Part shown: positions 1,210 to 15,295 of the stretch, piece after piece | Layout: every line of letters starts with the position of its first letter | How positions within the stretch are numbered: the stretch's first letter is position 1 | Assembly: GCA_946482615.1 (NCBI GenBank) | Contig: CAMLSF010000030.1 | Location: 1-28,188 of the forward strand | Source of the DNA: an uncultured Chromatiaceae bacterium | GTDB taxonomy: Bacteria > Pseudomonadota > Gammaproteobacteria > Enterobacterales > Alteromonadaceae | Direction: 5' to 3' | DNA length: 28,188 nucleotides | The notes under the pieces: model-generated | What the model was told of the DNA's origin: nothing | Seen by the model: only the letters and a program-made list of their open reading frames with translations | The model's database searches: none | Made by a program: the position numbers and the translations under genes

Positions 1210-1377
1210 AGGGGTGCAGATATTCAGAAGCTGTTCAGGCAATACTTGCTATAACCTGAAGCAAGCTGGTGATAAATGCATCAGTAGAGAAATTTTTGGA
1301 GTGTGGCGTCGGATCTCGCGACACTTTAACCTGTAGATCCGGGTTTTAGCGGCCACTTAATGTGGCAGGAGCTTAGA

Positions 1378-2904
1378 ATGCGTGCCCTGATGAAATGCTT
1401 ACCTTTGCTTTCAGTGGCTTTATTCCCAGCCTTGTTGGTTGCCCCTGTGGCAGCACAACAGACCGCCAGTGCCGGCAGCACTGTGCAAAGTTTTAGTCAG
1501 GCTGAGCTGGACTCCATGCTTGCTCCTATAGCTTTGTTCCCGGATACAGTGTTGTCGCATGTGCTGATTGCCTCGACTTATCCGCTGGAAATCATAAAAG
1601 CCAACAGGTGGGTGGAAGAACACCCAAATTACAGTGCTGAACAAGCGCTGGAGGAAGTTGAGGATGAAGATTGGGATCCAAGCGTAAAAGCTTTGGTGCC
1701 TTTTCCGCAACTGCTGGAGCGTATGAGCGATGATATCGACTGGACACAACGTTTAGGCGATGCGTTTTTAGGTCAGGAAGCACAAGTCATGACCAGTATC
1801 CAGACTTTGCGTAACAAAGCTTATGCTTCCGGGAATCTGGATAAACAAGAACATATTAAAGTGGTGAGACAGGAAAAAACCATCATCATAGAACCGGCTT
1901 CGCCAAAGGTTGTATACATTCCTTATTATGACCCTTATGTTGTTTATGGACCCTGGTGGTGGCACAGTTATCAACCTGTCTATTGGCATGTGCCTGTGGG
2001 TTATGCTGTGCATCGTGGTTTTTCCTGGGGTGTAGGTATTCAGATTGCACCAGGCTTTTATTTCAGCAGCTTTCACTGGCCACGTCGCCAGATTGTGGTG
2101 ATCGATCATCACCATCATTGGCGTGAGCCTTATTATTACCGCAGCCACCAGATCATTCACCATAAGAAGTCACATCACTGGCGCCATAACCCACATCACA
2201 GACGTGGCGTGAGCTACCATGCTGGTTATCAGCCAACCCGTGAGTTTAGTGGGAACCGTAGTTACCAGAATAAAGAGCAACAAAGGGAGTGGGCGGCGCA
2301 AACCCGCGAAAATAAGGGTTATGCTCCGGATCGCAAGTTTAATCATGAAAAAGAGCAACGTTTTGCGGAAAAAGATCGCCAGTTTGAACGCAATAAAAAA
2401 GGTGACGACCTGATCCGTCGCTCCAAAGAAGAGGGCCCGCGAGCTCAGGTAGAGCCAACCAATTCCCGTGAGTTCAGGGACAGGCAGCAGGAATTGCGTC
2501 AGGAACTGAAAAATAACAATCGCCAGGAGCCTGAGATAAACCGTGCGGTAAGGCAACCAAGGCCAGAGGTGGTTCGCCCTGAATCTACTTACCAAAGAAG
2601 AGAACAAGCTAAATTTGAACGTCCTGTGCAACAACCGAGAGTGGATACGGTACGACCAGAGCGTAGTTACCAGACTCCCCGTATTGAACAGCCCAGATTT
2701 GAGCAACCCAGGGTGGAGCGAAGCTACCAGCAACCCCGTGTTGAGCAGGCAAGGGTAGAACGCAGCTATCAGCAGCCTCGTGTTGAGTCGCCAAGGGTAG
2801 AACGTAGCTTTGAACAACCCAGGGTGCAGCAACCCAGGATGGAACAGCCAAGAGCACAAAGCAGAGAAATGCGCAGTCCGGAAGGTCGCCGACAAATCGA
2901 ATAA
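1378..2904 (+). CDS. Exported DUF3300 protein with His-rich middle and repetitive C-terminus
   Basis: I recognise the DUF3300 family: after a signal peptide (about residues 1-27, ending VAPVAAQQ) comes the conserved region of roughly residues 40-160, with LAPIALFPDTVLSHVLIAS and NRWVEEHP. The middle holds a VVYIPYYDPYVVYGPWWW stretch and an unusually His/Tyr-rich segment (HHHHW, HHKKSHHW, HHRRG). The last 250 or so residues are low-complexity Arg/Gln/Glu, ending in tandem VERSYQQPRVEQ-type repeats. I chose the ATG at 1378 rather than the in-frame ATG at 1360, because AGGAG at 1367-1371 sits six bases before it and the signal peptide then starts correctly. Function is unknown; envelope location and metal or polyanion binding are inferences from composition. 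An intrinsic terminator follows the stop. Confidence 0.85.
   Translation: MRALMKCLPLLSVALFPALLVAPVAAQQTASAGSTVQSFSQAELDSMLAPIALFPDTVLSHVLIASTYPLEIIKANRWVEEHPNYSAEQALEEVEDEDWDPSVKALVPFPQLLERMSDDIDWTQRLGDAFLGQEAQVMTSIQTLRNKAYASGNLDKQEHIKVVRQEKTIIIEPASPKVVYIPYYDPYVVYGPWWWHSYQPVYWHVPVGYAVHRGFSWGVGIQIAPGFYFSSFHWPRRQIVVIDHHHHWREPYYYRSHQIIHHKKSHHWRHNPHHRRGVSYHAGYQPTREFSGNRSYQNKEQQREWAAQTRENKGYAPDRKFNHEKEQRFAEKDRQFERNKKGDDLIRRSKEEGPRAQVEPTNSREFRDRQQELRQELKNNNRQEPEINRAVRQPRPEVVRPESTYQRREQAKFERPVQQPRVDTVRPERSYQTPRIEQPRFEQPRVERSYQQPRVEQARVERSYQQPRVESPRVERSFEQPRVQQPRMEQPRAQSREMRSPEGRRQIE
2710..2835 (+). repeat. Three tandem 42-bp units in the DUF3300 gene tail
   Basis: Units at 2710-2751, 2752-2793 and 2794-2835 each encode 14 residues on the pattern RVERSYQQPRVEQP. 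The third is more degenerate, and looser PRVE/PRFE motifs flank the array on both sides. The first two differ mainly at synonymous positions. Such arrays commonly vary in copy number between strains. Confidence 0.75.
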
Positions 2905-2921
2905 TGCTCTTCATTTCCCCA

Positions 2922-2945
2922 AAAAGGCAGCTTTGGCTGCCTTTT
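2922..2945 (+). terminator. Intrinsic terminator after the DUF3300 gene
   Basis: AAAAGGCAGC (2922-2931), loop TTTG, then GCTGCCTTTT (2936-2945): a perfect ten-pair stem whose arms supply A- and T-runs, so it could work in both directions. It begins 17 bases after the DUF3300 stop and separates that gene from the beta-lactamase. Confidence 0.85.
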
Positions 2946-2946
2946 G

Positions 2947-2952
2947 TATAAT
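2947..2952 (+). promoter_or_regulatory. Consensus -10 box (TATAAT) of the beta-lactamase gene
   Basis: A perfect TATAAT lies one base beyond the terminator stem and 29 bases before the bla ATG. The -35 position falls inside the terminator hairpin and shows no TTGACA-like hexamer, and there is no TGn extended -10. If this is the promoter it should be weak or need an activator. The upstream terminator argues that bla has its own promoter. Confidence 0.45.
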
Positions 2953-2981
2953 TAAGATAAACTTACAACAAGGACAGTCCG

Positions 2982-3908
2982 ATGAATGTCGTTACTAAAG
3001 GTGTTTTTATTGCTACAGCGCTGCTGATGTTGACCTTCAGTTCATTCAAAGCTTCAGCACAATCCCCGCTGTTAAAAGAGCAAATTGAAGCTATTGTGGC
3101 AGGTAAAAAAGCTACTGTAGGAGTTGCAGTATGGGGTCCTGATGATCTGGAGCCTTTACTGGTGAATCCTTTTGAAAAGTTTCCGATGCAAAGTGTATTT
3201 AAATTGCATTTAGCCATGCTGGTATTGCATCAGGTGGATCAGGGGAAGCTGGATTTAAATCAGTCCGTTACCGTCAACAGGGCTAAGGTTTTACAAAATA
3301 CCTGGGCTCCTATGATGAAAGAGTATCAGGGCGATGAGTTTACTGTCCCTGTGCAACAATTGCTGCAGTACTCTGTCTCACATAGTGATAATGTGGCCTG
3401 TGATTTGTTATTTGAACTGGTTGGTGGACCCGGAGTTTTGCATGACTATATTCAGTCTATAGGCATCACAGAGACGGCCGTGGTCGCAAATGAAGCACAA
3501 ATGCATGCGGATGATCAGGTGCAGTATCAAAACTGGACTTCGATGAAAGGTGCAGCTCAGATCTTAAAGAAGTTTGAGCAAAAAACGTTGCTGTCTGGAA
3601 CCTCTCAGGCTCTGTTATGGAAGTGGATGGTAGAAACCACCACAGGACCAGAGCGGTTAAAAGGCTTGTTACCAGCTGGCACTGTCGTGGCACATAAAAC
3701 CGGTTACTCTGGCATGAAAGCAGGAAAAACTGCGGCCACTAATGATATAGGTGTCATTATGTTGCCTGATGGACGGCCTTTGCTGGTTGCGGTCTTTGTG
3801 AAAGATTCAGCTGAATCAACACGCAGCAATGAAGCCATTATTGCGCAAATAGCTCAGGCTGCGTATCAGTTTGAACTGAAAAAGCTTTCTGCCGTCAGTC
3901 CAAATTAA
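2982..3908 (+). CDS. blaPER-like: PER-family class A extended-spectrum beta-lactamase
   Basis: A 308-residue periplasmic serine beta-lactamase with a signal peptide ending near SFKASAQ. The class A motifs are complete: SVFK with nucleophile Ser71 (Ambler 70), SDN at 135-137 (Ambler 130-132), the omega-loop Glu171 (Ambler 166) in NEAQMHADDQ, and KTG at 239-241 (Ambler 234-236). Gln before the active Ser, His at Ambler 170, and the shared stretches FPMQSVFKLHLAMLVL and WKWMVETTTGPERLKGLLP are PER signatures. By memory it matches PER-1 at most positions and has the same length; no alignment was run. Tyr242 follows KTG where I recall Thr in PER-1. The ribosome site is AGGA, seven bases before the ATG. 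No ampR-like regulator lies beside it. It hydrolyses beta-lactams and very likely oxyimino-cephalosporins, although Tyr242 makes the exact spectrum uncertain. Confidence 0.95.
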   Translation: MNVVTKGVFIATALLMLTFSSFKASAQSPLLKEQIEAIVAGKKATVGVAVWGPDDLEPLLVNPFEKFPMQSVFKLHLAMLVLHQVDQGKLDLNQSVTVNRAKVLQNTWAPMMKEYQGDEFTVPVQQLLQYSVSHSDNVACDLLFELVGGPGVLHDYIQSIGITETAVVANEAQMHADDQVQYQNWTSMKGAAQILKKFEQKTLLSGTSQALLWKWMVETTTGPERLKGLLPAGTVVAHKTGYSGMKAGKTAATNDIGVIMLPDGRPLLVAVFVKDSAESTRSNEAIIAQIAQAAYQFELKKLSAVSPN

Positions 3909-3981
3909 CAGAACATCAGGGCTATCAAAGCCGCTGACTATGGTTGTACACTGAAAGCATGATCTGAAAATGGAGTAGGTT

Positions 3982-4557
3982 ATGCAGTTATTAGGTTCAG
4001 TGGCGTCTCCTTTTGTACGTCGTTTACGTTTAGTACTGGCGGGGCAGCCTTATCAGTTTGTGGCTTTAAATATTTTTGAATCTGAAGGCCGGTCAGTGCT
4101 GGTGAAACACAATCCGGCGCGCAAAGTACCGGTGTTGGTGGATGATGGACAGGTCATTTTTGACTCAGGAGTGATTTATCGTTATCTGGCTCAGAAGTTA
4201 AAATTAAAACCATTAAGCTGGGATCAGGAAAACTGCCTGACCACTATTAATGCCTGTACAGACTCTCTGGTTGAACTACTGCTTTGCAAAAGATCTGGTT
4301 TTGATGTGACTGAAGATAAATTATTTTTTAATCTGCAACATGAACGTATTCAAGCCACGTTGGAAGCCCTGGAACAACAAATCCGGGCTGGGCAGTTTGG
4401 TGCCTGGGATTATCTGAGTATCAGTTTATTCACGTTAATAGACTGGATTTTATTCCGTGATTTGGTCGACTTAAAACCTTTCCCTGTGTTACTGCAGTTC
4501 AGAAACGAACATTTAAAACAGCCGCTGGTGGCTGAAACAGATCCCCGTTTAAGTTAA
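3982..4557 (+). CDS. Glutathione S-transferase-like protein (the gst that follows blaPER)
   Basis: A 191-residue cytosolic protein, slightly short for a GST. The N-terminal thioredoxin-like domain (about 1-75) shows MQLLGSVASPFVRRLRLVL, then HNPARKVPVLVDDG with the cis-Pro after Val, and DSGVIYRYL, which carries the usual Asp-Ser glutathione contact. The remainder is a helical GST C-domain, compact and weakly conserved. GGAG/AGG lies just before the ATG. It starts 73 bases after bla in the same direction, so the two may be co-transcribed. A gst-like gene directly downstream of blaPER is what I recall from mobile PER contexts. The real substrate is unknown, and a role in beta-lactam resistance is not implied. 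Confidence 0.85.
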   Translation: MQLLGSVASPFVRRLRLVLAGQPYQFVALNIFESEGRSVLVKHNPARKVPVLVDDGQVIFDSGVIYRYLAQKLKLKPLSWDQENCLTTINACTDSLVELLLCKRSGFDVTEDKLFFNLQHERIQATLEALEQQIRAGQFGAWDYLSISLFTLIDWILFRDLVDLKPFPVLLQFRNEHLKQPLVAETDPRLS

Positions 4558-4558
4558 A

Positions 4559-4579
4559 GCCAGAGCTGTTAGCTCTGGC
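4559..4579 (+). terminator. Hairpin after the gst gene
   Basis: GCCAGAGCT and AGCTCTGGC pair perfectly around GTT, two bases after the gst stop codon. No T-run follows on either strand, so it is either a weak terminator or an RNA-end-protecting hairpin. It lies between convergent genes. Confidence 0.45.
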
Positions 4580-4647
4580 CCAAAGGTTAGGATCCCAGGT
4601 GTTTTCAGGGACTTCTGACTGAAGCCTCAATAAACAGTCCGATATGT

Positions 4648-4670
4648 GGGTCAGAGCCAAGGCTCTGCCC
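4648..4670. repeat. Short REP-like palindrome between convergent genes
   Basis: GGGTCAGAGCC, AA, GGCTCTGCCC: a palindrome with one bulged T, six bases past the end of the ABC exporter gene. Its GGGTCAGAG arm is the same core as in the much longer palindrome after prc (27220-27266), which suggests a dispersed repeat family. It could also help terminate the exporter transcript. Confidence 0.45.
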
Positions 4671-4676
4671 CTGTGA

Positions 4677-6518
4677 TTATTCAACGCCAATAAAACCGCC
4701 GGTTTGATGTGCCCATAACTGAGCGTAAATCCCGCCTTTGGCGATCAGTTCCTGATGGCTGCCCTGCTCAACAATACGGCCTTGATCAAGCACTATCAGC
4801 CTGTCCATAGCCGCTATAGTGGATAAACGGTGTGCTATGGCTATTACTGTTTTGCCGACCATCAATTGAGTCAGGCTCTGCTGAATAGCGGCTTCTACCT
4901 CAGAATCCAGTGCTGAAGTGGCCTCATCCAGAATAAGGATCGGAGCGTTTTTCAACAGCACCCTGGCGATGGCAATACGCTGGCGTTGACCACCAGAGAG
5001 TTTTACACCCCGCTCGCCGACCTGAGCGTCGTATCCGCTGTTACCTTTGGGATCAGTCAGCTCCTGAATAAAAGTATCGGCTTCTGCTAAACGTGCCGCT
5101 GCAATCATTTCTGCTTCAGTAGCACCAGGGCGGCCATATAAAATGTTTTCCCGCACCGTACGGTGCAGCAAAGAGGTATCCTGCGTCACCATAGCTATAT
5201 GAGCACGCAGGCTTTCCTGTGATACGGTTTTAATGTCCTGACCATCTATTAAGATTTGACCTGAGTTGACATCATAAAAACGCAGCAGCAAGTTCACCAG
5301 GGTGGATTTACCTGCACCTGAGCGGCCCACTAAACCTACTTTTTCACCAGGTTTAATCGACAAGTCCAGACCATCGATCACCGGGCCGTGTTCGCCTGCC
5401 TTTTTGCCGTAGTTAAAATTCAGCTGTTTAAATTCAATCTGGCCTTGTGGCACTTCAATAGGTTTGGCTTCGGCTTTGTCCACTATCTGCTGAGGCTGAG
5501 AAAGTGTATCTATACCATCGGCCACAGTACCAATATTTTCAAACAGCGCGCTGACTTCCCACATGATCCATTGCGACATACCACTTAAACGCAGAGCTAA
5601 ACTGACCGCTATGGCGATAGCACCAACGGATACAGCATTGACTGTCCACAGCCAAATCGCCAATGCGGATATTGCAAATACCAGCAGATAGTTCAGGCTT
5701 TGCACCCAGACGTTCAGCCAGGTCGCCAGTCGCATTTGTTTGTAGACTGGCACCAGAAACAACTGCATGCTGTCGCGGGCATATTGTGATTCACGGGCCG
5801 TATGAGAAAACAATTTGATGGTGCTGATGTTGGTGTAACTGTCGACAATACGTCCCGTCATTTCTGAGCGGGCATCGGCTTGTTCTGTAGCCACCTGCTT
5901 CAGCCTCGGAACAAAATAAAACTGCAGACCAGTGTAAATCACCAGCCAGACAAGCATAGGCACCACTAAGCGCCAGTCCGCATCAGCGATCAGGTACAAC
6001 ATAGAACCAAAATACACCACCACATAGACCATAACATCCAGCAGCTTGGTCGCTGTTTCCCGCACTGCCAGTGCAGTTTGCATCACTTTAGTGGCGATCC
6101 GGCCGGCAAACTCGTTCTGGTAAAAGCCCAGGCTTTGTTTTAACAGGTAGCGGTGTGCTAACCAGCGGATCGACATGGGGTAGTTACCCAAAATGGTCTG
6201 GTGAATAAGAGCAGAATGCAAAAACACCAGTCCGGGTAAAATCAGCAGCATCACCACTGCCATAATGATCAAGGTGTCCTGTTCTTCCTGCCAAAAGGTT
6301 TCCGGATTCTTATTGACCAGCCAGTCAACCAGTTGTCCCATAAAACCAAATAAAGACACTTCCAGTGCGGCGAGTGACGCTGTAGCAATGGACATCAGGA
6401 TCAGCGGCAGCACCATACCTTGACTGTAGTGCAGACAAAAGGCAAACAGGCCCCGGGGCGGTTGAGTAGGCTCTTTATCAGGGAAGGGGTTGGTTAATCG
6501 TTCAAAAAAGCCCAGCAT
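4677..6518 (-). CDS. ABC transporter, fused permease and ATPase (ABCB/MsbA-type exporter)
   Basis: A 613-residue half-transporter. A six-helix exporter membrane domain spans roughly residues 35-325, then an ATP-binding domain from about 360. All nucleotide-binding motifs are present: Walker A GRSGAGKST at 398-406, Q-loop Gln446, signature LSGGQ at 507-511, Walker B ILILDE ending at Glu532, and switch His563 in AHRLST. It should act as a homodimer exporting lipids, peptides or drugs; the substrate is unknown. GAGGAA precedes the ATG. It converges on bla-gst, and it corresponds to the abct gene I recall downstream of gst in mobile PER contexts, apparently full length here. No accessory protein gene adjoins it. 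Confidence 0.93.
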   Translation of the reverse strand: MLGFFERLTNPFPDKEPTQPPRGLFAFCLHYSQGMVLPLILMSIATASLAALEVSLFGFMGQLVDWLVNKNPETFWQEEQDTLIIMAVVMLLILPGLVFLHSALIHQTILGNYPMSIRWLAHRYLLKQSLGFYQNEFAGRIATKVMQTALAVRETATKLLDVMVYVVVYFGSMLYLIADADWRLVVPMLVWLVIYTGLQFYFVPRLKQVATEQADARSEMTGRIVDSYTNISTIKLFSHTARESQYARDSMQLFLVPVYKQMRLATWLNVWVQSLNYLLVFAISALAIWLWTVNAVSVGAIAIAVSLALRLSGMSQWIMWEVSALFENIGTVADGIDTLSQPQQIVDKAEAKPIEVPQGQIEFKQLNFNYGKKAGEHGPVIDGLDLSIKPGEKVGLVGRSGAGKSTLVNLLLRFYDVNSGQILIDGQDIKTVSQESLRAHIAMVTQDTSLLHRTVRENILYGRPGATEAEMIAAARLAEADTFIQELTDPKGNSGYDAQVGERGVKLSGGQRQRIAIARVLLKNAPILILDEATSALDSEVEAAIQQSLTQLMVGKTVIAIAHRLSTIAAMDRLIVLDQGRIVEQGSHQELIAKGGIYAQLWAHQTGGFIGVE

Positions 6519-6888
6519 AAAATTCCTCAGCGGCGGCGAAAAGGCGGTTATTGTACGTCAAAGTTTAAAAAACAGATGTAACTATTTGACGAAAGCCCGT
6601 TTTATAGCGGCCATCTTAATTGACGCTCTGCAGCTCGTTATCTGTTTTTCAGCTGGACAGAACAACAGTTTGTTGAAAATAAATACAAAAAAATATGAAA
6701 AAACCAAAAACGGCTATCTCACGCTAACTCAGAAGCTTAGATTTATGTTTGTATCTGAAATGGGTAATTACCGAAAAATCTATAACTTAGCTTAAGTTTT
6801 CTGAGCTTGCAAAGGTTCTGATGCTTTCTACACTGAAGACACAGAGTACCCGAATCAGGGTGTTGTCTCGTCTTACAGGAGTGTTGAA
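6519..6888. other. 370-base intergenic region between divergent genes
   Basis: This AT-rich stretch must hold promoters for the ABC exporter (leftward) and the 209-residue gene (rightward). A tentative rightward promoter is listed separately. For the exporter I see TACAAT-like and TATAAA-like hexamers but no well-spaced -35 partner. Short open frames here lack ribosome sites and protein-like composition, and I do not accept them as genes. Confidence 0.5.
6807..6834 (+). promoter_or_regulatory. Tentative sigma-70 promoter of the 209-residue gene
   Basis: TTGCAA at 6807-6812 and TACACT at 6829-6834 are separated by 16 bases, about 55 bases before the ATG. Both hexamers match consensus at four of six positions. 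Confidence 0.4.
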
Positions 6889-7518
6889 ATGGATGCCAAA
6901 GAAATACTGGTCTATATGAAGCAAGCGGAATTGCAGGCAGAGTTAATAGTGGAGGCTGGTCAGCAACTGGACAGAGCCATCAAACAGTTGTATGACTGGT
7001 CTGAAGACTGGGATTGCCAGCGTCGTGCCTGTGAAGATATATACGATGCCGTGCATTTAATTTTGATCCATGCCTATCAGTTATCCCGGATATTCTGGCC
7101 AGCTAAATGCTGCGGGGAACAAGGGCTGGATATATGTCACAGGGCCATGGCTCTGCGCAGCGAAATCAATCTGCCTGACTTGAACCATCCACTGCGCAAT
7201 GAAGTGTTGTGGCGCCATGCGGCTGAGCTGGACCATTCAGTGAGGGACAATAATTCAATGCGTCGTTACAAAGCGCATCATTTAACCAGTTTTAATCAGG
7301 TCATTACCTGGATGGATAATGAAGCAATGTTTTGCTGGCTTGAACCTGCGAGTAAAATCTTTGTGTTTCACAGCGAAGAGTTTGCCCTGGAACCACTGTT
7401 AGACCTGGTGCAGCAGATTCAAAAGGAGATACAGCATTACCTAAAAAAGCAGCATCAGCCAAACTTAAGCTTGGCCAAACCTGCATTTTATCAGTATGAG
7501 AAGCAGTGGGCGAACTGA
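6889..7518 (+). CDS. Hypothetical protein, possible HEPN-like fold
   Basis: A 209-residue soluble, mostly helical protein. I do not recognise it with certainty. The start is supported by AGGAG ahead of the ATG. The first 50 residues are amphipathic helix, and HAYQLSRIFWP near residue 64 and PLRNEVLWRHAAELD near residue 105 stand out. The latter contains Arg-Asn, five residues, then His, which fits the R-x4-6-H motif of HEPN proteins. I recall bacterial hypothetical families combining a helix ending in FWP with an LRN...H motif, but this protein is not matched to one. HEPN proteins include RNases in toxin-antitoxin and defence systems; whether this one is catalytic is unknown. It ends 22 bases from a convergent gene, with a small GCGGC/GCCGC hairpin between them. 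Confidence 0.6.
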   Translation: MDAKEILVYMKQAELQAELIVEAGQQLDRAIKQLYDWSEDWDCQRRACEDIYDAVHLILIHAYQLSRIFWPAKCCGEQGLDICHRAMALRSEINLPDLNHPLRNEVLWRHAAELDHSVRDNNSMRRYKAHHLTSFNQVITWMDNEAMFCWLEPASKIFVFHSEEFALEPLLDLVQQIQKEIQHYLKKQHQPNLSLAKPAFYQYEKQWAN

Positions 7519-7540
7519 CAGATGCGGCCTTTCAGAGCCG

Positions 7541-7867
7541 CTACTTGGTCAGTCTGATAAAACCATAACTTTGAATATCCTGAACTTTGTTTTGTTGTAA
7601 GCTCTCTGCTACTTCCGCCTGAAAATCCTCTACATACAGATGTAAATCATCCTGAAATTGCTCATCCAGTTTTTTGCGTTTTTCCGCTTCGCTGGTTCTT
7701 TGCACATCAAATGCCTGCATGCAGAGTTTATGCGCTCTTTGCTCCATTTGTTGCGAAACCCGTTGCTCTATTTCCTTAACCGTTAAATGGCGGCATGTTT
7801 TTTTGTACCAAAACAGGCCACTGAGCAACAATAAGCCCATTACTGAAAGTGAGATAAATTCAATCAT
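7541..7867 (-). CDS. Small single-pass membrane protein with coiled-coil tail
   Basis: 108 residues: one N-terminal membrane helix (about residues 3-21, ISLSVMGLLLLSGLFWY), then a highly charged helical region rich in Glu, Lys and Gln (about 30-95) that should form a coiled coil. AAGGA precedes the ATG. The start overlaps the stop of the upstream membrane-protein gene by four bases (ATGA), so the two are probably translationally coupled. I know no family for it. It is the third gene of the unit that begins with the repeat protein. It might act as a membrane-anchored scaffold or partner of the upstream membrane protein, which is inference only. Confidence 0.65.
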   Translation of the reverse strand: MIEFISLSVMGLLLLSGLFWYKKTCRHLTVKEIEQRVSQQMEQRAHKLCMQAFDVQRTSEAEKRKKLDEQFQDDLHLYVEDFQAEVAESLQQNKVQDIQSYGFIRLTK

Positions 7868-8355
7868 AAAGCCATTCCTTTTTTATCAGCCCTGAAGTCC
7901 TTAATAAGCCAGAATACAGCAAAGGGCACTACGGAAATATTAATAGAGACAATGACATACTTGTAAACAGCTGCAAGCATATTGGTATCAAAAACTACTC
8001 TGTCGGCGTAACGCATAAATTGTAAAGTACAAAGGCTCAGAAAGCAGACCATCACGTAGCGGGTGAGTTTACTGGCTGGTATCTGGTACAGAGTATGGAT
8101 TTTATAAATGCTCCATAAACAAAGTATTTCTATTGAAGCCCAGGTAACATACCAAAATGAAGGCCCCGCCACTTTGTTGCTGGTTGCTACATCCATCACA
8201 TAAGGTTGGATCAAATCCATCAACAAGTTGCCTGTTACCCATACGCTTAAAGCAATTCTGAAAGAAAGATCCGACTTACAGATAACAGAAATACCCAGTA
8301 GCAGGAGGCAAATTAACCAAAATATCCTGTCTATGTTGTATGCAAAATCGCCCAC
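7864..8355 (-). CDS. Polytopic membrane protein of unknown function
   Basis: 163 residues with four or five hydrophobic helices (around 10-28, 33-50, 65-85, 98-115 and 128-148) and a short basic cytoplasmic tail DFRADKKG. The start is GTG, supported by AGGA eight bases upstream. It begins 16 bases after the stop of the repeat-protein gene and overlaps the next gene by four bases, so the three form an operon. I see no catalytic or transport motif, and no family is recognised. A role connected to the upstream repeat protein (export, anchoring or immunity) is suggested only by the arrangement. Confidence 0.65.
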   Translation of the reverse strand: MGDFAYNIDRIFWLICLLLLGISVICKSDLSFRIALSVWVTGNLLMDLIQPYVMDVATSNKVAGPSFWYVTWASIEILCLWSIYKIHTLYQIPASKLTRYVMVCFLSLCTLQFMRYADRVVFDTNMLAAVYKYVIVSINISVVPFAVFWLIKDFRADKKGMAL

Positions 8356-8371
8356 TAGAATAATCCTACAC

Positions 8372-8743
8372 TTACGCCTCTATCGGAGGTTCGTTTCCCG
8401 AACCGCTTCCAAGGGCTTTTGTGATTGGAGGTTCGTTTCCTGAGCCACTTCCAAGAGCTTTTGTGATTGGAGGTTCATTTCCTGAGCCACTACCTAAAGC
8501 TCTTGTGATTGGCGGCTCGTTTCCTGATCCGCTCCCCAAGGCTCTTGTGATTGGTGGCTCATTGCCTGAGCCGCTGCCTAACGCCTCCGCAGCAAATCTG
8601 GCTTTTGCTTCAGCAGATAATGTGACCTTATCCCCAGCCGCTGGAGTTGCTGCAGTGTTAGTTGTGGCAGGTGCTGCAGCAGGTGCAACAGTGGAGGTTG
8701 CGTATGCAGCTGCAGTGCCAGGGGTATTTAAATTGATTTGCAT
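8372..8743 (-). CDS. Small protein with five 14-residue Gly/Ser/Asn/Glu/Pro repeats
   Basis: About 123 residues in two parts. The N-terminal 55 are Ala/Thr/Pro-rich (MQINLNTPGTAAAYATSTV...) and end in GDKVTLSAEAKARFAAE. The rest is a tandem array of ALGSGSGNEPPIT followed by Arg or Lys, five units, the last ending in IEA. I prefer the ATG at 8743 because AGGGA sits five bases upstream; the in-frame GTG at 8764 has no ribosome site. There is no signal peptide, Cys or catalytic motif. A promoter and the two downstream membrane-protein genes make it the first gene of an operon. The repeat copies differ at third codon positions while the peptide stays almost fixed, which suggests selection for the peptide. 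Function is unknown; a multi-copy peptide precursor or a structural/binding tail are both possible. Confidence 0.7.
   Translation of the reverse strand: MQINLNTPGTAAAYATSTVAPAAAPATTNTAATPAAGDKVTLSAEAKARFAAEALGSGSGNEPPITRALGSGSGNEPPITRALGSGSGNEPPITKALGSGSGNEPPITKALGSGSGNEPPIEA
8381..8584 (-). repeat. Tandem 42-bp repeat array, four full units and one truncated
   Basis: In transcript order the units are 8543-8584, 8501-8542, 8459-8500, 8417-8458 and a truncated 36-base unit 8381-8416. All encode ALGSGSGNEPPI, followed by TR in the first two full units and TK in the next two. DNA differences between units are mostly synonymous. Confidence 0.9.
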
Positions 8744-8793
8744 AGGAGTCCCTACTGTTGTCACTAAATCAGAAAACCAATGTACACGAACTG

Positions 8794-8821
8794 TTTATAA
8801 AAAAGCCAATAGTTTTTACAA
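8794..8821 (-). promoter_or_regulatory. Sigma-70-type promoter of the repeat-protein operon
   Basis: Read on the minus strand, TTGTAA (8816-8821) and TATAAA (8794-8799) are separated by 16 bases. Transcription would start near 8787, leaving a leader of about 45 bases before the preferred ATG at 8743. Confidence 0.55.
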
Positions 8822-8875
8822 CAGAATGAAATTTGTAGGGAAATGTGGTTTTGAGTAGCGACAAATTTCAGGCAT

Positions 8876-8902
8876 AAAAAAACCTGCCATAAAAAGCAGG
8901 TT
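8876..8902 (-). terminator. Intrinsic terminator of tRNA-Pro
   Basis: On the minus strand, AACCTGC and GCAGGTT form a seven-pair stem around an eight-base loop, followed by a run of T. It begins eight bases beyond the encoded CCA end of the tRNA, as expected for a single-tRNA transcript. Confidence 0.85.
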
Positions 8903-8909
8903 AATTTAA

Positions 8910-8986
8910 TGGTCGGTACGAGAGGATTTGAACCTCCGACCCCTGACACCCCATGACAGTGCGCTACCAAGCTGCGCTACGTACCG
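8910..8986 (-). tRNA. tRNA-Pro (anticodon GGG)
   Basis: A 77-base cloverleaf. Acceptor stem CGGTACG/CGTACCG is followed by discriminator A and an encoded CCA. The D-arm is AGCGCAGCTTGGTAGCGC, the anticodon loop is ATGGGGT with anticodon GGG, and the T-arm carries GGTTCAAATCC. It closely resembles E. coli proL, including the non-canonical pair in the anticodon stem. It reads CCC (and CCU) codons. I see no duplicate of its 3' end elsewhere in the window, so there is no sign that it serves as an integration site here. Confidence 0.96.
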
Positions 8987-8995
8987 ACGTTGGGC

Positions 8996-9026
8996 CTTAT
9001 ACTACTGCTTTAACTTATAAATGCAA
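8996..9026 (-). promoter_or_regulatory. Probable promoter of tRNA-Pro
   Basis: On the minus strand TATAAG (8996-9001) lies ten bases before the tRNA 5' end and is followed by a GC-rich stretch (GCCCAACG), as in stringently controlled stable-RNA promoters. The candidate -35, TTGCAT (9021-9026), has a long 19-base spacer and is less certain. Confidence 0.4.
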
Positions 9027-9076
9027 TGCCCTATGGTTTGACTGCGTTTTTTTTGTTCGCTTTGGCACGTCTTGGG

Positions 9077-10012
9077 TTAATTTCCAAGCGCCAACTCTAC
9101 CCAATGCTGATAAACAGGAATAGCCAGCAGTACGTTGACCGGGAAGGTAATGCCTAAAGAGGCCAGCATCGCCAGGCCTATATTGGCATCCGGAATGCTG
9201 GCGCGCACTGCGGCTGGCGCTGCTATATATGAGGCGCTGGCGGCTAAAGTGGTCAGCACCAGTAACGAGCCCTGAGGTAAATCCAGCAGTAAACCAAAAG
9301 CCAAGCCTAAAGCGCCTAAAGCAAATGGTGCTAAAGCAGCAAACAGCATCAAACGCCAGTGTTGTAATGGTAGCGGGTTGCACACTTTGGCTGTACATAA
9401 CCCCATTTCTAATAAAAACAATGCCAGCATGGTTTTAAAACCACCAATAAGGGCAGGGGCTATAGGCTCTAAACCTTCAGGCCCATACAAATAACCAATG
9501 AATACACCACCGCCAAGCAACAGCACACCGCGGCTGGTTAAAGCCTCACGCCAGATCTGGGCTTGTTTACCCTGACCTTTAAGAGCGCCGTACAGGCCAA
9601 GCATAATGACTATCGCAGGTAGCTCGAGCATCACCAGATAAAGGGTGGTTTCAGGTAATAATGGTAAACCGGATTTCTCGGCAAGGGCCAGTACCACGGC
9701 AAAAGTACCGGCGCTGACGGAACCATAATGAGCGGCGATACTGACGGAGTCTGAGTTAGTCAATTGGATCAGGTAACGTAATACAGGATAAGCCAGCAGC
9801 GGAATAATTAAACCTAAAGCCGCAACTGCTAACAGATCCGGCAGCATACCGCTATGGGCCTGACCATGCAAAGCCATACCCCCTTTGAGACCCAGTACCA
9901 GCATCAGCAGAATAGAAAGGGTTTCGTAGATAGACTGAGGCACTTTTAAATCGGACTTTAATAAACCTGCAATCAGGCCAAAGGCAAAAAAGGCAATCAC
10001 AATATCAGGCAT
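9077..10012 (-). CDS. SbtA-like sodium-dependent bicarbonate transport family permease
   Basis: A 311-residue inner-membrane protein with eight to ten helices, recognised as the SbtA family (Na+-dependent bicarbonate permease). Supporting stretches are YETLSILLMLVLGLKGGMAL near the N-terminus, AHYGSVSAGTFAVVLA in the middle, and SASYIAAPAAVRASIPDA with GITFPVNV near the C-terminus. Length fits the compact bacterial members. GGAG precedes the ATG. In cyanobacteria SbtA feeds the carbon-concentrating mechanism together with SbtB; no SbtB-like gene adjoins this one, so in a heterotroph it probably supplies bicarbonate for carboxylation or transports another anion. It is divergent from the LysR regulator, which probably controls it. 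Confidence 0.85.
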   Translation of the reverse strand: MPDIVIAFFAFGLIAGLLKSDLKVPQSIYETLSILLMLVLGLKGGMALHGQAHSGMLPDLLAVAALGLIIPLLAYPVLRYLIQLTNSDSVSIAAHYGSVSAGTFAVVLALAEKSGLPLLPETTLYLVMLELPAIVIMLGLYGALKGQGKQAQIWREALTSRGVLLLGGGVFIGYLYGPEGLEPIAPALIGGFKTMLALFLLEMGLCTAKVCNPLPLQHWRLMLFAALAPFALGALGLAFGLLLDLPQGSLLVLTTLAASASYIAAPAAVRASIPDANIGLAMLASLGITFPVNVLLAIPVYQHWVELALGN

Positions 10013-10068
10013 GACTTCACTCCGTAGCTGTTATTGGCTGGCGATTGTGCCTGTCTTTGGGTATATTG

Positions 10069-10107
10069 GATAATTAATTGTTTACCACTTTACTATTGAT
10101 GATTATC
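10069..10107. promoter_or_regulatory. Possible LysR-regulator site between divergent genes
   Basis: GATAAT (10069-10074) and ATTATC (10102-10107) form a separated inverted repeat in AT-rich DNA directly before the regulator ATG. LysR proteins usually bind such dyads in the shared region of divergently transcribed targets. Spacing between the arms is wide, so this is only a candidate. The region lacks a clear ribosome site for the regulator. Confidence 0.3.
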
Positions 10108-10108
10108 T

Positions 10109-11083
10109 ATGGATGTGCGGCATTTAAGTTTCAGACTGTTGCAGGTCTATGTACAGGTGGTGCGGCTCGCATCGGTTTCCGCAGCAGCGCGGGTATTGCA
10201 TTTAACCCAACCTACGGTGTCTTTGCAGTTAAAAAAACTGGCAGATGAAGTGGGGCAACCTTTGCTTGAGTACCGGGAAGGTAAGGTGCATACCACCTAC
10301 CTTGGTGACGCATTATTTCAGGCGGCTTCTGATGTGCTGAGTCGTTTTGATGATTTTTCGTCCTTACTGGAAGAAGCCAAAGGTGGACGTAGTGGCACTT
10401 TAAGTTTAGGTATAGTCACCACCGCCAAATATGTGATGCCGACTATTCTTGGTGCTTTTGATAAAGCCAACCCCAAAATTGCCGTGACTTTAAATGTGGG
10501 CAACAGAGCTCATATTCTGAACCGCTTTGGCCATCAGGATGATGATTTGTATCTGTTCAGTCAGCCTCCCAGCGGCGAACTGGTGCAGGCTTGTCGTATT
10601 ATCAAAAATCCTCTGCAGCTGATAGCACCAGTGGATCACTGGGCCTCCCGTTATTGTGCAGAGGGCGGCGAGCTTGATTTTTCCGCCTTAAAAAATGAAC
10701 GGTTTTTAATGCGTGAGCCCGGCTCTGCCACCCGGATGCAGTTTGAATCCTGGTTGAGTAGTCAAGGGGTCGAGTTATCAAAGACGATGCAAATCGAAAG
10801 CAATGAGGCCATACGCTTAAGTGTAGCCAGTGGCCTGGGGCTGGCAGTGTTATCAACCTACACTTTAGATCAACACTCTGAGCAATTTAGTCTGTTGAAA
10901 GTCAAAGGTTTTCCACTGAACAGTCATTGGTATCTGGTGGCGCGCAAGGACAAAAGACTAAGTGCTTCAGCCAGGCGACTTATCCAGTTTATTGCTCAGC
11001 ATCTGACAGATTGTATTGAAGCGCAGTGGGTGGTTGACGATATTGCAGAGCTGCCGCAGCACTTTTTTCCCGGAGTTGATTAG
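10109..11083 (+). CDS. LysR-family transcriptional regulator, probable controller of the SbtA-like permease
   Basis: 324 residues. The N-terminal winged helix-turn-helix (about 5-64) is classical: VRLASVSAAARVLHLTQPTV then SLQLKKLADEVGQPLL. The effector-binding domain follows (about 95-300), with LSLGIVTTAKYVMP and SNEAIRLSVASGLGLAVLS typical of the family. It resembles the CbbR/CmpR branch, which regulates carbon-fixation and bicarbonate-uptake genes; that subgrouping is by general look only. Divergent placement, 96 bases from the permease, is the usual LysR-target arrangement and makes autoregulation likely. No strong ribosome site precedes the ATG, but MDVRHLSFRLLQ is a normal LysR start. 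Confidence 0.9.
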   Translation: MDVRHLSFRLLQVYVQVVRLASVSAAARVLHLTQPTVSLQLKKLADEVGQPLLEYREGKVHTTYLGDALFQAASDVLSRFDDFSSLLEEAKGGRSGTLSLGIVTTAKYVMPTILGAFDKANPKIAVTLNVGNRAHILNRFGHQDDDLYLFSQPPSGELVQACRIIKNPLQLIAPVDHWASRYCAEGGELDFSALKNERFLMREPGSATRMQFESWLSSQGVELSKTMQIESNEAIRLSVASGLGLAVLSTYTLDQHSEQFSLLKVKGFPLNSHWYLVARKDKRLSASARRLIQFIAQHLTDCIEAQWVVDDIAELPQHFFPGVD

Positions 11084-11085
11084 GT

Positions 11086-11116
11086 ATGCCGGAACAGCCT
11101 TCAGCTGTCCCGGCAT
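11086..11116. terminator. Hairpin between convergent genes (probable bidirectional terminator)
   Basis: ATGCCGG-A-ACAGC and GCTGT-C-CCGGCAT pair across a five-base loop with a single A/C mismatch. It fills almost the whole gap between the LysR gene and the catalase-like gene. No strong T-run follows on either side, so termination efficiency is uncertain. Confidence 0.5.
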
Positions 11117-11122
11117 CACCTC

Positions 11123-12106
11123 TTATTGCAGCCTACGGCCAAAACTGACCGAATAGGCGACAGGGCGGGTTTGCAGTACCGGATCTGCGGTAGCAGTAAT
11201 ACCTTTGGTTAACAGCAATGGGTTAAACATTTGTTTGTCCCAGGTTGCGGTGTCAGTGGGTACAGCATCCAGTTTAATGGTGCCCAGTTCAACAATGCGT
11301 CTGTCGTCCGGCCAGGTTTTACTGCCATCAAGTAAAGGATCGCCCTCGTTTGGTAACTGCGCCTGCAGGCTAAACTCCACAGGCGTTTTTGTTACCCTTT
11401 GTTTTATTTCTTCCATCAGGAAATCCGGTGCCATTTTTTTTGCCGCCTCATCGGTCAAAAAGTTGGCTCCGGCTTTTGGCACTATACGGTAGCGAAAATG
11501 CTGCTGTACGCCTTTGTCATTTTCAAAAATAAAGCTGTTTACACCAAAAAAGGACTGATTAGCAAAACTGGCTGGTACAGGTTTAGGTGTCTGGACAAAA
11601 GTTAAAGCTGCAGGGTGGCTTTGTAAAAACTTCTCCAGTTGAGTGGGTTTATTGGTGTCTGTTGCGTTGGTTTTTATCGCGGTTAACAGCTCCAGAAACT
11701 CTTCAGGTGTTGCCACAGGAAAACCGTTGTAGGAAATACTGACAATGTCGGTGGAGCTTTGATCCGGTAAAGTAAAGCGTATCGCCATGCCATTAGGCCG
11801 GGCATGAGGATCGGCGTCCGGCAAGTTTGGTACACCAGTGCCGTTGGAAAAACGCACTGTCACAGGCACTGTCTGGCTAAAATGAACGGCTGTGCTGTAA
11901 TTTTTTGCCTCTGCCGAAGGGGTGAAGCTGCCTGACACTATAGCCCCTTTGGCGTGATTGGAGCGAAAGCCTTTATGCGGTCCCTGAGCCAGCTCTGTTA
12001 ACGTATCCACTAATTTGACTGCCACATTGCCATTATCCTGTGCCAGAGATGGCATACAGCTGATAGCAATAAGGCTCAGAGTTCCTAATGTTAAACTTTT
12101 AGTCAT
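11123..12106 (-). CDS. Exported catalase-family peroxidase (SrpA-like)
   Basis: 327 residues from the chosen ATG, which gives a signal peptide MTKSLTLGTLSLIAISC...SLAQ and has an AAGG-type ribosome site; the in-frame extension upstream to 12259 does not look like protein. The body is a minimal catalase fold: FRSNHAKGAIVSGSF carries the distal His51, VTVRFSNGTG and RPNGMAIRF are haem-pocket segments, and RPVAYSVSFGRR at the C-terminus carries the likely proximal haem ligand Tyr318. At this length it lacks the domains of full monofunctional catalases, like SrpA-type catalase-related peroxidases. It probably uses haem to reduce peroxides in the periplasm. A signal-peptide Cys (Cys17) lies too early for a good lipobox. 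It converges with the LysR gene. Confidence 0.88.
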   Translation of the reverse strand: MTKSLTLGTLSLIAISCMPSLAQDNGNVAVKLVDTLTELAQGPHKGFRSNHAKGAIVSGSFTPSAEAKNYSTAVHFSQTVPVTVRFSNGTGVPNLPDADPHARPNGMAIRFTLPDQSSTDIVSISYNGFPVATPEEFLELLTAIKTNATDTNKPTQLEKFLQSHPAALTFVQTPKPVPASFANQSFFGVNSFIFENDKGVQQHFRYRIVPKAGANFLTDEAAKKMAPDFLMEEIKQRVTKTPVEFSLQAQLPNEGDPLLDGSKTWPDDRRIVELGTIKLDAVPTDTATWDKQMFNPLLLTKGITATADPVLQTRPVAYSVSFGRRLQ

Positions 12107-12558
12107 GACCTTAACCTTTTGAATGAAATGAACCTGCAGCAGTGTAAGCTTCGAATGAACATGGCTTATACTGCGGGTTCGGCTGATAACATGAGTAGTT
12201 GAGAGAAACTCAATCAAACAGCACTGTCTGCACTTCCTGTCGAACCACCTGAATTTCAATTTGAGTATGGTCAGAATTTCTCCGCCTTGCCATTTTCTGA
12301 TTGTGCCGTTTTGCCGCCGGCAGCCTCAGCGATTTTTTTATCCCTGCCCATACCTGTGTATGACTGCCGCATCGGATGGCGGTGGCGGTGATCAGGGCCT
12401 GGCTTTGAATGAAGTTACAAGGTAAATAAAATGTTTTTTATTTAAGTAATTTGTCACAAATATGAGCTAGTCTTGTTTTTCTCTGGTGGGAAAGCAGAGT
12501 TAAGATTGGGGGCAGGACGCAAATCCTCATCACATAACAAGAACTTACAGGATTTATA
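12107..12558. other. 452-base intergenic region between divergent genes
   Basis: It holds the upstream regions of the catalase-like gene (leftward) and the nuclease gene (rightward). Leftward, a TATAAG hexamer lies near 12165-12170 without a clear -35. Rightward, the last 130 bases are structured: CTCTG/CAGAG (near 12481-12498) and AGGA/TCCT around CGCAAA (near 12514-12527) form small hairpins in the leader. The ribosome site is AGGA before the ATG at 12559. I see no gene and no RNA family I can name. Confidence 0.5.
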
Positions 12559-13839
12559 ATGAAACAGATCACAACTATGTCACTGCTGGCGGGAGCGCTC
12601 TACAGTGTCAGCAGCTTTGCCAGTCTGCTGATCACCGAAGTGTTGTACGACTCGCCAAATAATGACAACACCGAAGAATTTGTTGAGCTGTACAACAACA
12701 GCTGTACTGCCATTAATCTGCAAGGTTACAGCCTGCAGGATAATGGTGGCAGCTTTAGTTTGTCTGGTACTGTAGCGCCGCGCAGTTATTTTCTGGTGGC
12801 AAAAAATACTGCAGCTATGCAAAGTTTGTATGGCAAAACCCCACAGCTTGCCGGTTTAACTCTGGCTTTTGGCAACAGCGGCGATTACGTTAAGTTAAAA
12901 AATGGCAGCATAGAAATAGATGCTGTCGGCTGGGAAAATGGCTTGTCCGGCTGGTCTATCAATGCGGTGGATAAATCCATTAGCCGTAATAAAACCACCG
13001 ACAGCAATCTGGTCTCTGACTGGGTGGTGTCAGGCAATTATGGTAACCCGGGCACTGGTGTCTTTACTGCAAGCTGCAGCGGTGGTGGTGATACAGGAGG
13101 TGGTACTGAACCTGTTGTGAATCAGCCCACTTATTACGCCGCTGCGCTGGGTAAATCAGGCTCTGAGCTTAAAGCCGCGCTTAACAGCATTTTACGGGGC
13201 CATGTGCGTTTAACTTACAGTCAGGTGTGGGATGCTATTTCCTATACAGATGAAGATCCAAACAATACCAATAATGTCATTCTGCTTTATGCAGGCCGCT
13301 CCGAAGCCAAAACCTTCCGTGCAGGCCAAACCAATTCGTTGGATGCCTGGAATCGTGAACATGTTTGGGCAAAAAGTCATGGTTTCCCTAATGAAAGCCA
13401 ATATGCCTATACAGATATCCATCACCTGCGCCCGGCTGATGTGTCTATTAACTCCAGCCGCGGCAATAAAGACTTTGACTTAGGCGGTACACCTCTGACG
13501 GAAGCGCCGGAAAATAAAACCGACAGCGACAGCTTTGAGCCCCGTAATGCGGTCAAAGGTGACGTTGCCCGTATGATGTTTTACATGGATGTACGCTATG
13601 AAGGCGGAGATGAAACAGGTACTCCCGATTTAGTGTTACGCAACTATGCACCAACCGGCAGCTCAGCGCCTGAAATGGGCAAACTCTGTGTACTGCTGCA
13701 ATGGCATATTCAGGATCCGGTCGATAGTTTTGAAAGCCGCCGTAATAACCGCATTTACGAATGGCAACAAAACCGCAACCCCTTTATCGACAACCCGCAA
13801 TGGGCGCAGTCGATTTATGGCGCCAGCTGTGGTTTATAA
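12559..13839 (+). CDS. Secreted nuclease: lamin-tail domain plus endonuclease I domain
   Basis: 426 residues. A signal peptide (about 1-21, ending SSFAS) is followed by a lamin-tail domain (about 22-135: LLITEVLYDSPNNDNTEEFV, INLQGYSLQDNGG), a Gly-rich linker (SGGGDTGGG, about 174-184), and an endonuclease I domain (about 200-420). The beta-beta-alpha-metal active site is NREHVWAKSHGF with His268, followed by DIHHLRPAD and FEPRNAVKGDVARMMFYMD. These enzymes cut DNA and RNA outside the cell, usually for nutrient scavenging or biofilm turnover. The lamin-tail domain probably anchors or targets the enzyme. The ribosome site is AGGA. It stands alone; a hairpin follows. Confidence 0.93.
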   Translation: MKQITTMSLLAGALYSVSSFASLLITEVLYDSPNNDNTEEFVELYNNSCTAINLQGYSLQDNGGSFSLSGTVAPRSYFLVAKNTAAMQSLYGKTPQLAGLTLAFGNSGDYVKLKNGSIEIDAVGWENGLSGWSINAVDKSISRNKTTDSNLVSDWVVSGNYGNPGTGVFTASCSGGGDTGGGTEPVVNQPTYYAAALGKSGSELKAALNSILRGHVRLTYSQVWDAISYTDEDPNNTNNVILLYAGRSEAKTFRAGQTNSLDAWNREHVWAKSHGFPNESQYAYTDIHHLRPADVSINSSRGNKDFDLGGTPLTEAPENKTDSDSFEPRNAVKGDVARMMFYMDVRYEGGDETGTPDLVLRNYAPTGSSAPEMGKLCVLLQWHIQDPVDSFESRRNNRIYEWQQNRNPFIDNPQWAQSIYGASCGL

Positions 13840-13857
13840 GGCTTGAGGCTTGTCCGG

Positions 13858-13881
13858 GCTGCTTTTGTAAGCAAAAGCAGC
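13858..13881 (+). terminator. Hairpin after the nuclease gene
   Basis: GCTGCTTTTG, loop TAAG, CAAAAGCAGC: a perfect ten-pair stem starting 18 bases after the stop codon. No T-run follows, so it may terminate weakly or protect the mRNA end. Confidence 0.5.
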
Positions 13882-13955
13882 TTGGAGTGTTTCAGGGGGC
13901 AAGCTAGAATGGGCCAACTTAAAAAAGCGTTGAAGCGCTAAAGAATGGAGCATCT

Positions 13956-15008: not shown

Positions 15009-15047
15009 GCCACTGCTTTTTTCGTTTCCACAGTACAAAAACTCTGA

Positions 15048-15085
15048 CAGCTGGTCTCTGTTCACAAGATAGACCAGCTGTTTTT
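15048..15085 (+). terminator. Intrinsic terminator of astE
   Basis: CAGCTGGTCT (15048-15057) and AGACCAGCTG (15071-15080) form a perfect ten-pair stem around a 13-base loop, followed immediately by TTTTT. Between it and the dehydrogenase operon (15086-15295) I see no gene and no well-spaced promoter. Confidence 0.88.
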
Positions 15086-15295
15086 ATTTATGCATCAGGT
15101 TGCAATGCAGTTTACGTAAAGGTAAAGTTGCGGCCGAAAATAATAAGAAAACAGCTAAACTTATAAAGCACGTAAAACAAAAATAATGGTCAGGGCAAAC
15201 GGGGAAACGCAATTCACGAATAAAGAGTGGTCAGCAAGCCACCAGGCGTTCATATCGTTGCCACAGTCTGACGGATACAACCAAAAGAGACACCT

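What the first reader, a model, noticed from the sequence alone, without database searches (positions are those of the whole stretch)
2982..6518. Chromosomal source-type locus of the PER beta-lactamase: bla - gst - ABC exporter without mobile elements
Directly seen: a full PER-like class A enzyme, a GST-like gene 73 bases downstream, and a convergent, apparently intact ABC exporter, set among ordinary genes with no insertion sequence or integrase in 28 kb. From the literature as I remember it, mobile blaPER in clinical isolates is followed by gst and an ABC transporter fragment, and PER has been traced to Pararheinheimera/Rheinheimera. Inference: this is the ancestral locus or a close relative, showing what flanks the mobilised fragment. 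The small differences from PER-1 suggest a related species rather than the direct donor.
Basis: partly seen in the sequence, partly recalled or inferred. Interest (0 to 1): 0.85.

Follow-up and report, generated by a model that had tools for sequence, protein, structure and literature searches.

The report
Native chromosomal PER beta-lactamase locus
This looks like the ordinary chromosomal home of a PER-type beta-lactamase gene in a Rheinheimera-group bacterium, the already published reservoir from which relatives of this gene moved into hospital bacteria; this species appears to be a cousin of the donors, not the donor.

Summary
In detail: bla (2982-3908), gst (3982-4557) and a convergent intact ABC exporter (4677-6518, minus) are present, and no transposase or integrase was recognised nearby. 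bla passes NCBIfam's PER cut-off and is 88.3% identical to PER-1.
Added here: (1) Not a sampled donor: PER-1's element carries 5.66 kb colinear with R. tangshanensis (95.9%), PER-2 is nearest R. faecalis (87-89%); the window matches both at 81-86% (73% over one 202-base end piece). (2) The PER-1 capture runs past the ABC gene to about window 8785. (3) PER sits in 12 of 22 genus genomes; gst and ABC in all 22; the other ten have a clean 43-139-base gap. (4) Natural PER enzymes are dimorphic at Ambler 237: Tyr here and in 4 of 12 genomes, Thr in 8 of 12 and in all 9 plasmid copies read (of 97 found). Tyr also occurs in distant relatives. (5) PER-1 and R. tangshanensis bla share a near-identical 0.5-kb middle between diverged ends, suggesting recombination in the reservoir. 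Interest is modest.

The parts
1360..2904 (+). DUF3300 protein gene, the conserved left neighbour of the bla slot; its last part is repetitive
   Evidence: Pfam PF11737, 306.6 bits; homologue of its first 345 residues in 21 of 22 genomes of the genus, the miss being G010, whose contig ends in bla. A DNA search of the plasmid collection with this gene found 4 partial matches of at most 15% coverage, in Paraburkholderia and Cupriavidus records
2921..2952 (+). Intergenic hairpin (terminator-like: GGCAGC/GCTGCC stem with A and T runs) directly followed by TATAAT at 2947-2952, a possible -10 element for bla
   Evidence: Sequence; RNA fold -17.7 kcal/mol, z -3.64, 0 of 200 shuffles as good; L003's is weaker, z -2.85, 2 of 200. 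Hairpin seen in 9 of 10 chromosomal upstream regions printed (window, L001-L008; not L009); exact TATAAT in 7 of these 10 (variants in L001, L006 and L009). Hairpin also in the plasmid copies printed. The consensus scan listed neither a promoter nor a terminator here
2982..3908 (+). bla: PER-family class A beta-lactamase, 308 aa, with Tyr at Ambler 237 (residue 242)
   Evidence: NCBIfam NF000389, 661.8 bits, cut-off 650; S70, K73, S130, N132, E166, K234 present; dN/dS 0.059-0.108 to the 7 chromosomal orthologues with finite dS (L006 saturated; L008 and L010 not used)
3982..4557 (+). gst: glutathione S-transferase-like protein, 191 aa
   Evidence: Pfam GST_N; in 22 of 22 genomes of the genus
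4677..6518 (-). ABC exporter (fused permease and ATPase), intact, convergent to gst
   Evidence: NCBIfam MsbA-like match below cut-off; in 22 of 22 genomes
6889..7518 (+). 209-aa ORF without family match; lies inside the segment carried by PER-1 plasmids such as pXBB1-9
   Evidence: PER-1 plasmid L011 matches window 4649-7510 at 83.2%; no Pfam or NCBIfam match
2921..8785 (.). Projection on this window of the segment captured with PER-1 (plasmid pXBB1-9; 5,663 bases there)
   Evidence: L011 8005-13667 is colinear with R. tangshanensis L002 9940-15628 at 95.9%; L011 13469-13667 matches window 8585-8785 at 73%. Identity to L002 stops at both ends

Best explanation
This is the native locus of a PER-family class A serine beta-lactamase in an unnamed species of the Rheinheimera/Pararheinheimera group. 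The enzyme most likely works as PER enzymes do: Ser70 is acylated by the beta-lactam and Glu166-activated water releases it. Motifs are shown; activity is inferred. bla is a lineage-specific gene set between a DUF3300 gene and gst, behind a terminator-like hairpin with a TATAAT at its foot, so it is probably transcribed weakly on its own (inferred). The same slot in relatives supplied the PER-1, PER-7 and PER-2 segments, now beside ISCR1 or ISPa12 with different left break points. This species is not one of the donors seen in these calls.
For: PER cut-off passed. Catalytic residues kept. bla dN/dS 0.059-0.108. Homology through both flanks with the contigs. Of 101 plasmid records matching window 2700-6900, 52 cover at least 80% of it in one place. 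PER in 12 of 22 genomes of the genus, gst and ABC in 22 of 22; 10 of 10 PER-less genomes have a 43-139-base gap and no bla remnant but one tblastn hit at E 8.2. PER-1 segment 95.9% to R. tangshanensis; PER-2 pieces 87.4-88.7% to R. faecalis; window 81-86% to both, 73% over a 202-base piece. Left ends differ: about 61 (PER-1), 75 (PER-7) and at least 97 (PER-2) bases before the start codon. Published: PER listed from Pararheinheimera (PMC7782503, passages); 5.7-kb ISCR1-linked region with gts, abct and four ORFs (PMC3934969, passages).
Against: No whole genome is held for the window, so chromosomal location rests on synteny. Activity, expression and substrate range are untested. Tyr237 departs from the Thr of the mobile PER copies read. 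The promoter scan found no sigma-70 site before bla, and the terminator scan did not list the hairpin.
Confidence: 0.93

Rival explanations
1. The locus is a back-transfer: a mobile bla-gst-abc segment re-inserted into an environmental chromosome.
For: Mobile segments occur in Acinetobacter (28 of 101 records), Vibrio (12) and Aeromonas (2), some from sewage or shrimp.
Against: No mobile-element remnants recognised. Homology to relatives runs on through both flanks. The window matches the mobile copies at 81-86%, 73% over the short end piece, no closer than it matches native loci.
Confidence: 0.02
2. This species is the direct donor of one of the known mobile PER genes.
For: Same order and similar length of the segment.
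Against: 84.9, 83.2 and 73.3% DNA identity to three parts of the PER-1 segment, 81-86% to PER-2, 84.4-84.6% to PER-7, while other species reach 95.9%, 87-89% and 95.0%.
Confidence: 0.02
3. The Tyr237 enzyme has moved away from cephalosporin hydrolysis and serves another role, such as a narrow penicillinase or a cell-wall enzyme.
For: In LRA-5 Thr237 contacts the ceftazidime carboxylate, and its link to Arg220 is noted also for PER and KPC (PMC12777564, passages); Tyr cannot place its hydroxyl in the same spot (inference).
Against: All other catalytic residues and Arg220 are kept. Tyr occurs at this place in 18 of the 61 listed relatives at 42-50% identity, so it is a common natural state.
Confidence: 0.12

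Closest known systems
PER beta-lactamases and their reported Pararheinheimera reservoir (Ebmeyer et al. 2018, not read, known from PMC7782503)
   Same: PER-family gene in a native setting with conserved neighbours; relatives mobilised with ISCR1 or ISPa12
   Different: About 16-17% away in DNA from R. mesophila and R. tangshanensis over this locus; Tyr237 in place of Thr237; not a donor seen here
ISCR1-bla(PER-1)-gts-abct-4 ORF region of pXBB1-9 (PMC3934969)
   Same: Colinear bla, gst, ABC, 209-aa-ORF homologue and a match near window 8585-8785
   Different: Flanked by ISCR1 and a second sul1 segment; 95.9% to R. tangshanensis but 83-85% (73% at its end) to this window; Thr237
R. tangshanensis CGMCC 1.6362 locus (L002)
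   Same: Same order, Tyr237
   Different: 88.3% bla protein identity to this window; nearest of the ten fetched chromosomal loci to PER-1 and PER-7
Subclass A2 class A beta-lactamases, some from Bacteroidota
   Same: Subclass A2 model passed (406.6 bits, cut-off 320); Tyr237 also occurs among relatives at 42-50%
   Different: 42-50% identity in the capped listing; the few of these with a named organism are Bacteroidota

Membership tests
PER beta-lactamase family | Score above the curated NCBIfam blaPER cut-off | tested here: met
   661.8 bits, cut-off 650
PER beta-lactamase family | Class A motifs S70-x-x-K73, S130-D-N132, E166, K234-T-G, with His170 and Arg220 | tested here: met
   All present in the window's protein. 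In the 73-row set one row has His132, one Arg234, and one or no gap per position; the rest agree
PER beta-lactamase family | Thr at Ambler 237, as in the mobile PER copies read | tested here: not met
   Tyr here; the PER set has T 46, Y 25, S 1, gap 1 of 73 rows. Not part of the curated cut-off, so membership stands
PER beta-lactamase family | Extended-spectrum cephalosporin hydrolysis | not testable with these tools
   Needs enzyme assays
Native chromosomal PER locus (reservoir) | Conserved neighbours in several species and no mobile elements recognised | tested here: met
Direct donor of a mobile PER gene | Near-identical DNA to a mobile segment including its flanks | tested here: not met
   81-86%, with 73% over a 202-base end piece, to PER-1, PER-2, PER-3 and PER-7 segments; all 97 bla-bearing plasmid records 80-90%

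The most novel reading that the evidence does not exclude
In the reservoir, bla(PER) is a recombining, balanced gene: Tyr237 and Thr237 forms recur across species and move in 3' blocks, while capture into clinical plasmids has sampled only Thr237 forms because these protect better against clinical cephalosporins. The present locus would be a Tyr237 form that clinical selection passes over.
Probability: 0.15. Interest if true: 0.55.

Novelty: new member of a known kind. Interest (0 to 1): 0.3.

Why it matters
It adds a further species to the known PER reservoir and shows what flanks the mobilised piece. The gene fills a slot that genus relatives leave empty, the PER-1 block is colinear with 5.7 kb of Rheinheimera chromosome, and this species is a cousin of the donors. 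The Tyr/Thr split at position 237 and the mosaic of PER-1 against R. tangshanensis turn 'PER came from Rheinheimera' into a question that can be tested: which natural forms were taken up, and why.

Tried and rejected
Tyr237 as a unique or degenerate state: rejected, since it occurs in 25 of 73 PER rows and in 18 of the 61 listed relatives at 42-50% identity (a capped list, 120 of 969 hits).

Tyr-to-Thr change after mobilisation of PER-1: not needed. The sister proteins P0012, P0015 and P0017 carry Thr, so Thr in PER-1 may be inherited or have come in with the diverged 3' block.

Clinical sampling of Thr only: 9 of 9 plasmid copies read have Thr, out of 97 records with bla, and they stem from perhaps three captures. 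With about two thirds of natural forms Thr, this is not significant (own estimate).

Coupling of position 237 with 240 or 280: strong by raw counts, but there are only 3 independent pairs on supported branches, so no test was possible.

The neighbouring gst as a FosA/FosZ-type fosfomycin enzyme: rejected. FosZ is a 136-residue protein of the metal-dependent FosA kind (PMC12888890, passages); this one has GST_N domains.

A megablast match in complete E. coli genomes: none (near mode only).

The first try at reading residue 237 in L014-L025 returned nothing because of a wrong pattern; it was repeated correctly.
Full report
What is there. The window holds a complete PER-family gene at 2982-3908, a gst at 3982-4557 (73 bases on) and a convergent 613-aa ABC exporter at 4677-6518 on the minus strand. 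The bla product scores 661.8 bits with NCBIfam's blaPER model (cut-off 650) and 406.6 with the subclass A2 model. It is 88.3% identical to mobile PER-1, 87.3% to PER-2 and 88.0% to PER-7. Flanking genes look ordinary by their best family matches, some below cut-off: a drug/metabolite-type transporter, DUF3300, a LysR regulator, a bicarbonate transporter, catalase, endonuclease I, an E1/E2 dehydrogenase complex, a protein kinase, an M1 peptidase, ProQ and a tail-specific protease. One tRNA-Pro lies at 8910-8986. No transposase or integrase was recognised in the 24 distinct proteins scanned; five had no Pfam match, and short overlapping ORFs and the window's ends were not scanned.

Where it comes from. 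Ten contigs in the genome collection encode a relative at 76-90%, eight titled Rheinheimera and two unnamed gammaproteobacterial MAGs. DNA homology runs on through the flanks, at 80-87% with the longer pieces of R. mesophila, R. tangshanensis and R. faecalis. The nearest protein, P0001 at 99%, is on a 1.4-kb ENA contig.

The slot. In the 22 genomes that the tool groups as the genus, a PER relative of 76% or more occurs in 12; two more have only a 40-41% relative on another contig. gst is in 22 of 22, ABC in 22 of 22 and the DUF3300 gene in 21 of 22; the miss is a contig that ends inside bla. The 12 PER-bearing genomes have gst at 89-96% to the window, the 10 others at 58-66%. In those ten, the DUF3300 stop and the gst start are 43-139 bases apart, and a tblastn of bla found only one hit at E 8.2. 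So bla was perhaps gained once at the base of one group or lost once at the base of the other. Gain is the better guess: of 295 genomes drawn from the family, 12 had a match at E 1e-60, eight at 76% or more, all already in the genus set, and four at 41-43%; the draw missed four PER-bearing genomes of the genus. This is inference, as no species tree was built. That lineages of Pararheinheimera-like genera may have acquired such genes long ago is already suggested in PMC7782503 (passage).

Constraint. NG86 dN/dS of bla between the window and seven chromosomal orthologues is 0.059-0.108 (an eighth, L006, had saturated dS; L008 and the partial L010 were not used). For gst it is 0.022-0.056 and for ABC 0.023-0.037, over eight orthologues each; many dS values exceed 1 and are rough. 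bla is thus constrained, though less tightly than its neighbours. The catalytic residues are kept.

Upstream signal. Between DUF3300 and bla lies a hairpin with a GGCAGC/GCTGCC stem flanked by A and T runs (-17.7 kcal/mol, z -3.64; in L003 z -2.85), followed at once by TATAAT (2947-2952). The hairpin is seen in 9 of 10 chromosomal upstream regions printed, the exact TATAAT in 7 of 10, and the hairpin also in the plasmid copies printed. The consensus scan listed neither a promoter nor a terminator there. Weak native transcription with boosting by an incoming element is inference. That insertion elements upstream can supply a promoter for blaPER-1 is recalled; the title of one such paper was seen in a reference list.

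Mobile copies. Region 2700-6900 matches 101 plasmid records, 100 at 80-90%; in 52 one place covers at least 80% of it. bla alone matches 97, all at 80-90%. On pXBB1-9 (L011) bases 8005-13667 are colinear with R. tangshanensis 9940-15628 at 95.9% over 5,690 aligned columns, and identity ends at both sides. This fits the published 5.7-kb region with gts, abct and four ORFs (PMC3934969, passages). It lies between ISCR1 and a second sul1 segment. PER-7 (L013) is 95.0% to R. tangshanensis and stops inside the ABC gene. The PER-2 copies (L012, L051, L053) are 87.4-88.7% to R. faecalis L003, with the MAG L010 next at 86.8-87.8%. In L053 the ABC gene is annotated whole and ISPa12 lies upstream of bla. 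In L051 it is split by a Tn3-family transposon near window 5317-5325, and the chromosome-like DNA goes on to about window 8166. Left ends lie about 61 (PER-1), 75 (PER-7) and at least 97 (PER-2) bases before bla. These look like separate captures, as PMC7782503 illustrates for PER-1, PER-2 and PER-6 (passages). The window itself matches these copies at 81-86%, 73% over the last 202-base piece, so it is not the donor.

Position 237. The window reads KTG-Tyr where the mobile PER copies read KTG-Thr. Of 73 PER rows (window, 10 loci, 3 mobile, 59 proteins) 46 have Thr, 25 Tyr, 1 Ser and 1 a gap. The rows include duplicates and 90% cluster representatives: P0003 stands for 160 members whose own residue was not read. 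By genome, 4 of 12 have Tyr. Nine plasmid copies read all have Thr, of 97 with bla. On a careful tree of 71 rows (P0059 and L010 left out) without that column the fewest changes are 6, with 3 forced by well-supported branches; recombination may inflate this. Among the 61 listed relatives at 42-50% identity, Tyr occurs in 18, Thr in 20, Ser in 13 and others in 10. In LRA-5 Thr237 touches the ceftazidime carboxylate, and a Thr237-Arg220 link is noted for PER and KPC (PMC12777564, passages), so a difference in substrate range is plausible, untested. A search for papers with T237Y, A237Y, S237Y, Tyr237 or Thr237Tyr found 109 and listed 25; none of the 25 concerned beta-lactamases by title, and the other 84 were not seen.

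Mosaic. PER-1 and R. tangshanensis bla differ at 8 of the first 71 bases, 1 of the next 495 and 23 of the last 361. The longest run without a difference spans 323 bases, a gap not reached in 20,000 random placements; for PER-7 the gap is 284, p 0.0001. That control ignores uneven rates along the gene. In the 3' block, which holds residue 237, PER-1 has 4 residue differences to P0017 and 8 to R. tangshanensis; in the middle it has 13 and 1. Which lineage is the recombinant cannot be told from these data.

Verdict. The origin is published (Ebmeyer 2018, known here only through PMC7782503), hence the modest interest. The empty slot with its measured gap, the 237 dimorphism and the mosaic are the parts I did not find stated in the passages I read; the Ebmeyer paper itself was not seen, so they may be in it. 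A search for papers with blaPER and Rheinheimera found two.

Noticed in passing
L055 6982-9018 (LC521852.1, pKP17_NDM1): A 2.0-kb tail of the PER-1-type captured segment (97.7% to R. tangshanensis) sits behind blaNDM-1 and ble; no bla(PER) or gst is listed in the 14.9-kb stretch fetched, as if an ISCR1-linked exchange left a scar.
   Followed up: partly
L053 (NZ_MH475146.1, pCf164_LMB-1): By its name this plasmid also carries LMB-1; PMC7782503 lists LMB-1 as from Rheinheimera pacifica, so two Rheinheimera-derived beta-lactamases may share one plasmid.
   Followed up: no
L011 and L013 bla against L002 bla: In PER-1 a 495-base middle tract with 1 difference lies between ends that differ at 11% and 6%; PER-7 shows a similar pattern.
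   Followed up: partly
window 7541-8785: A stretch of small ORFs without Pfam matches before tRNA-Pro (8910-8986). DNA homology breaks here with L001, L002 and L010 but runs on to about 8300 or beyond with L003-L009; the PER-1 and PER-2 captures both end in it.
   Followed up: partly
window about 2580-2860: The end of the DUF3300 gene is built of repeated short units and aligns raggedly with relatives.
   Followed up: no
L026 (G016:C16:41589-42461): A 41% class A relative with one in-frame stop in a genome of the genus that lacks PER.
   Followed up: no
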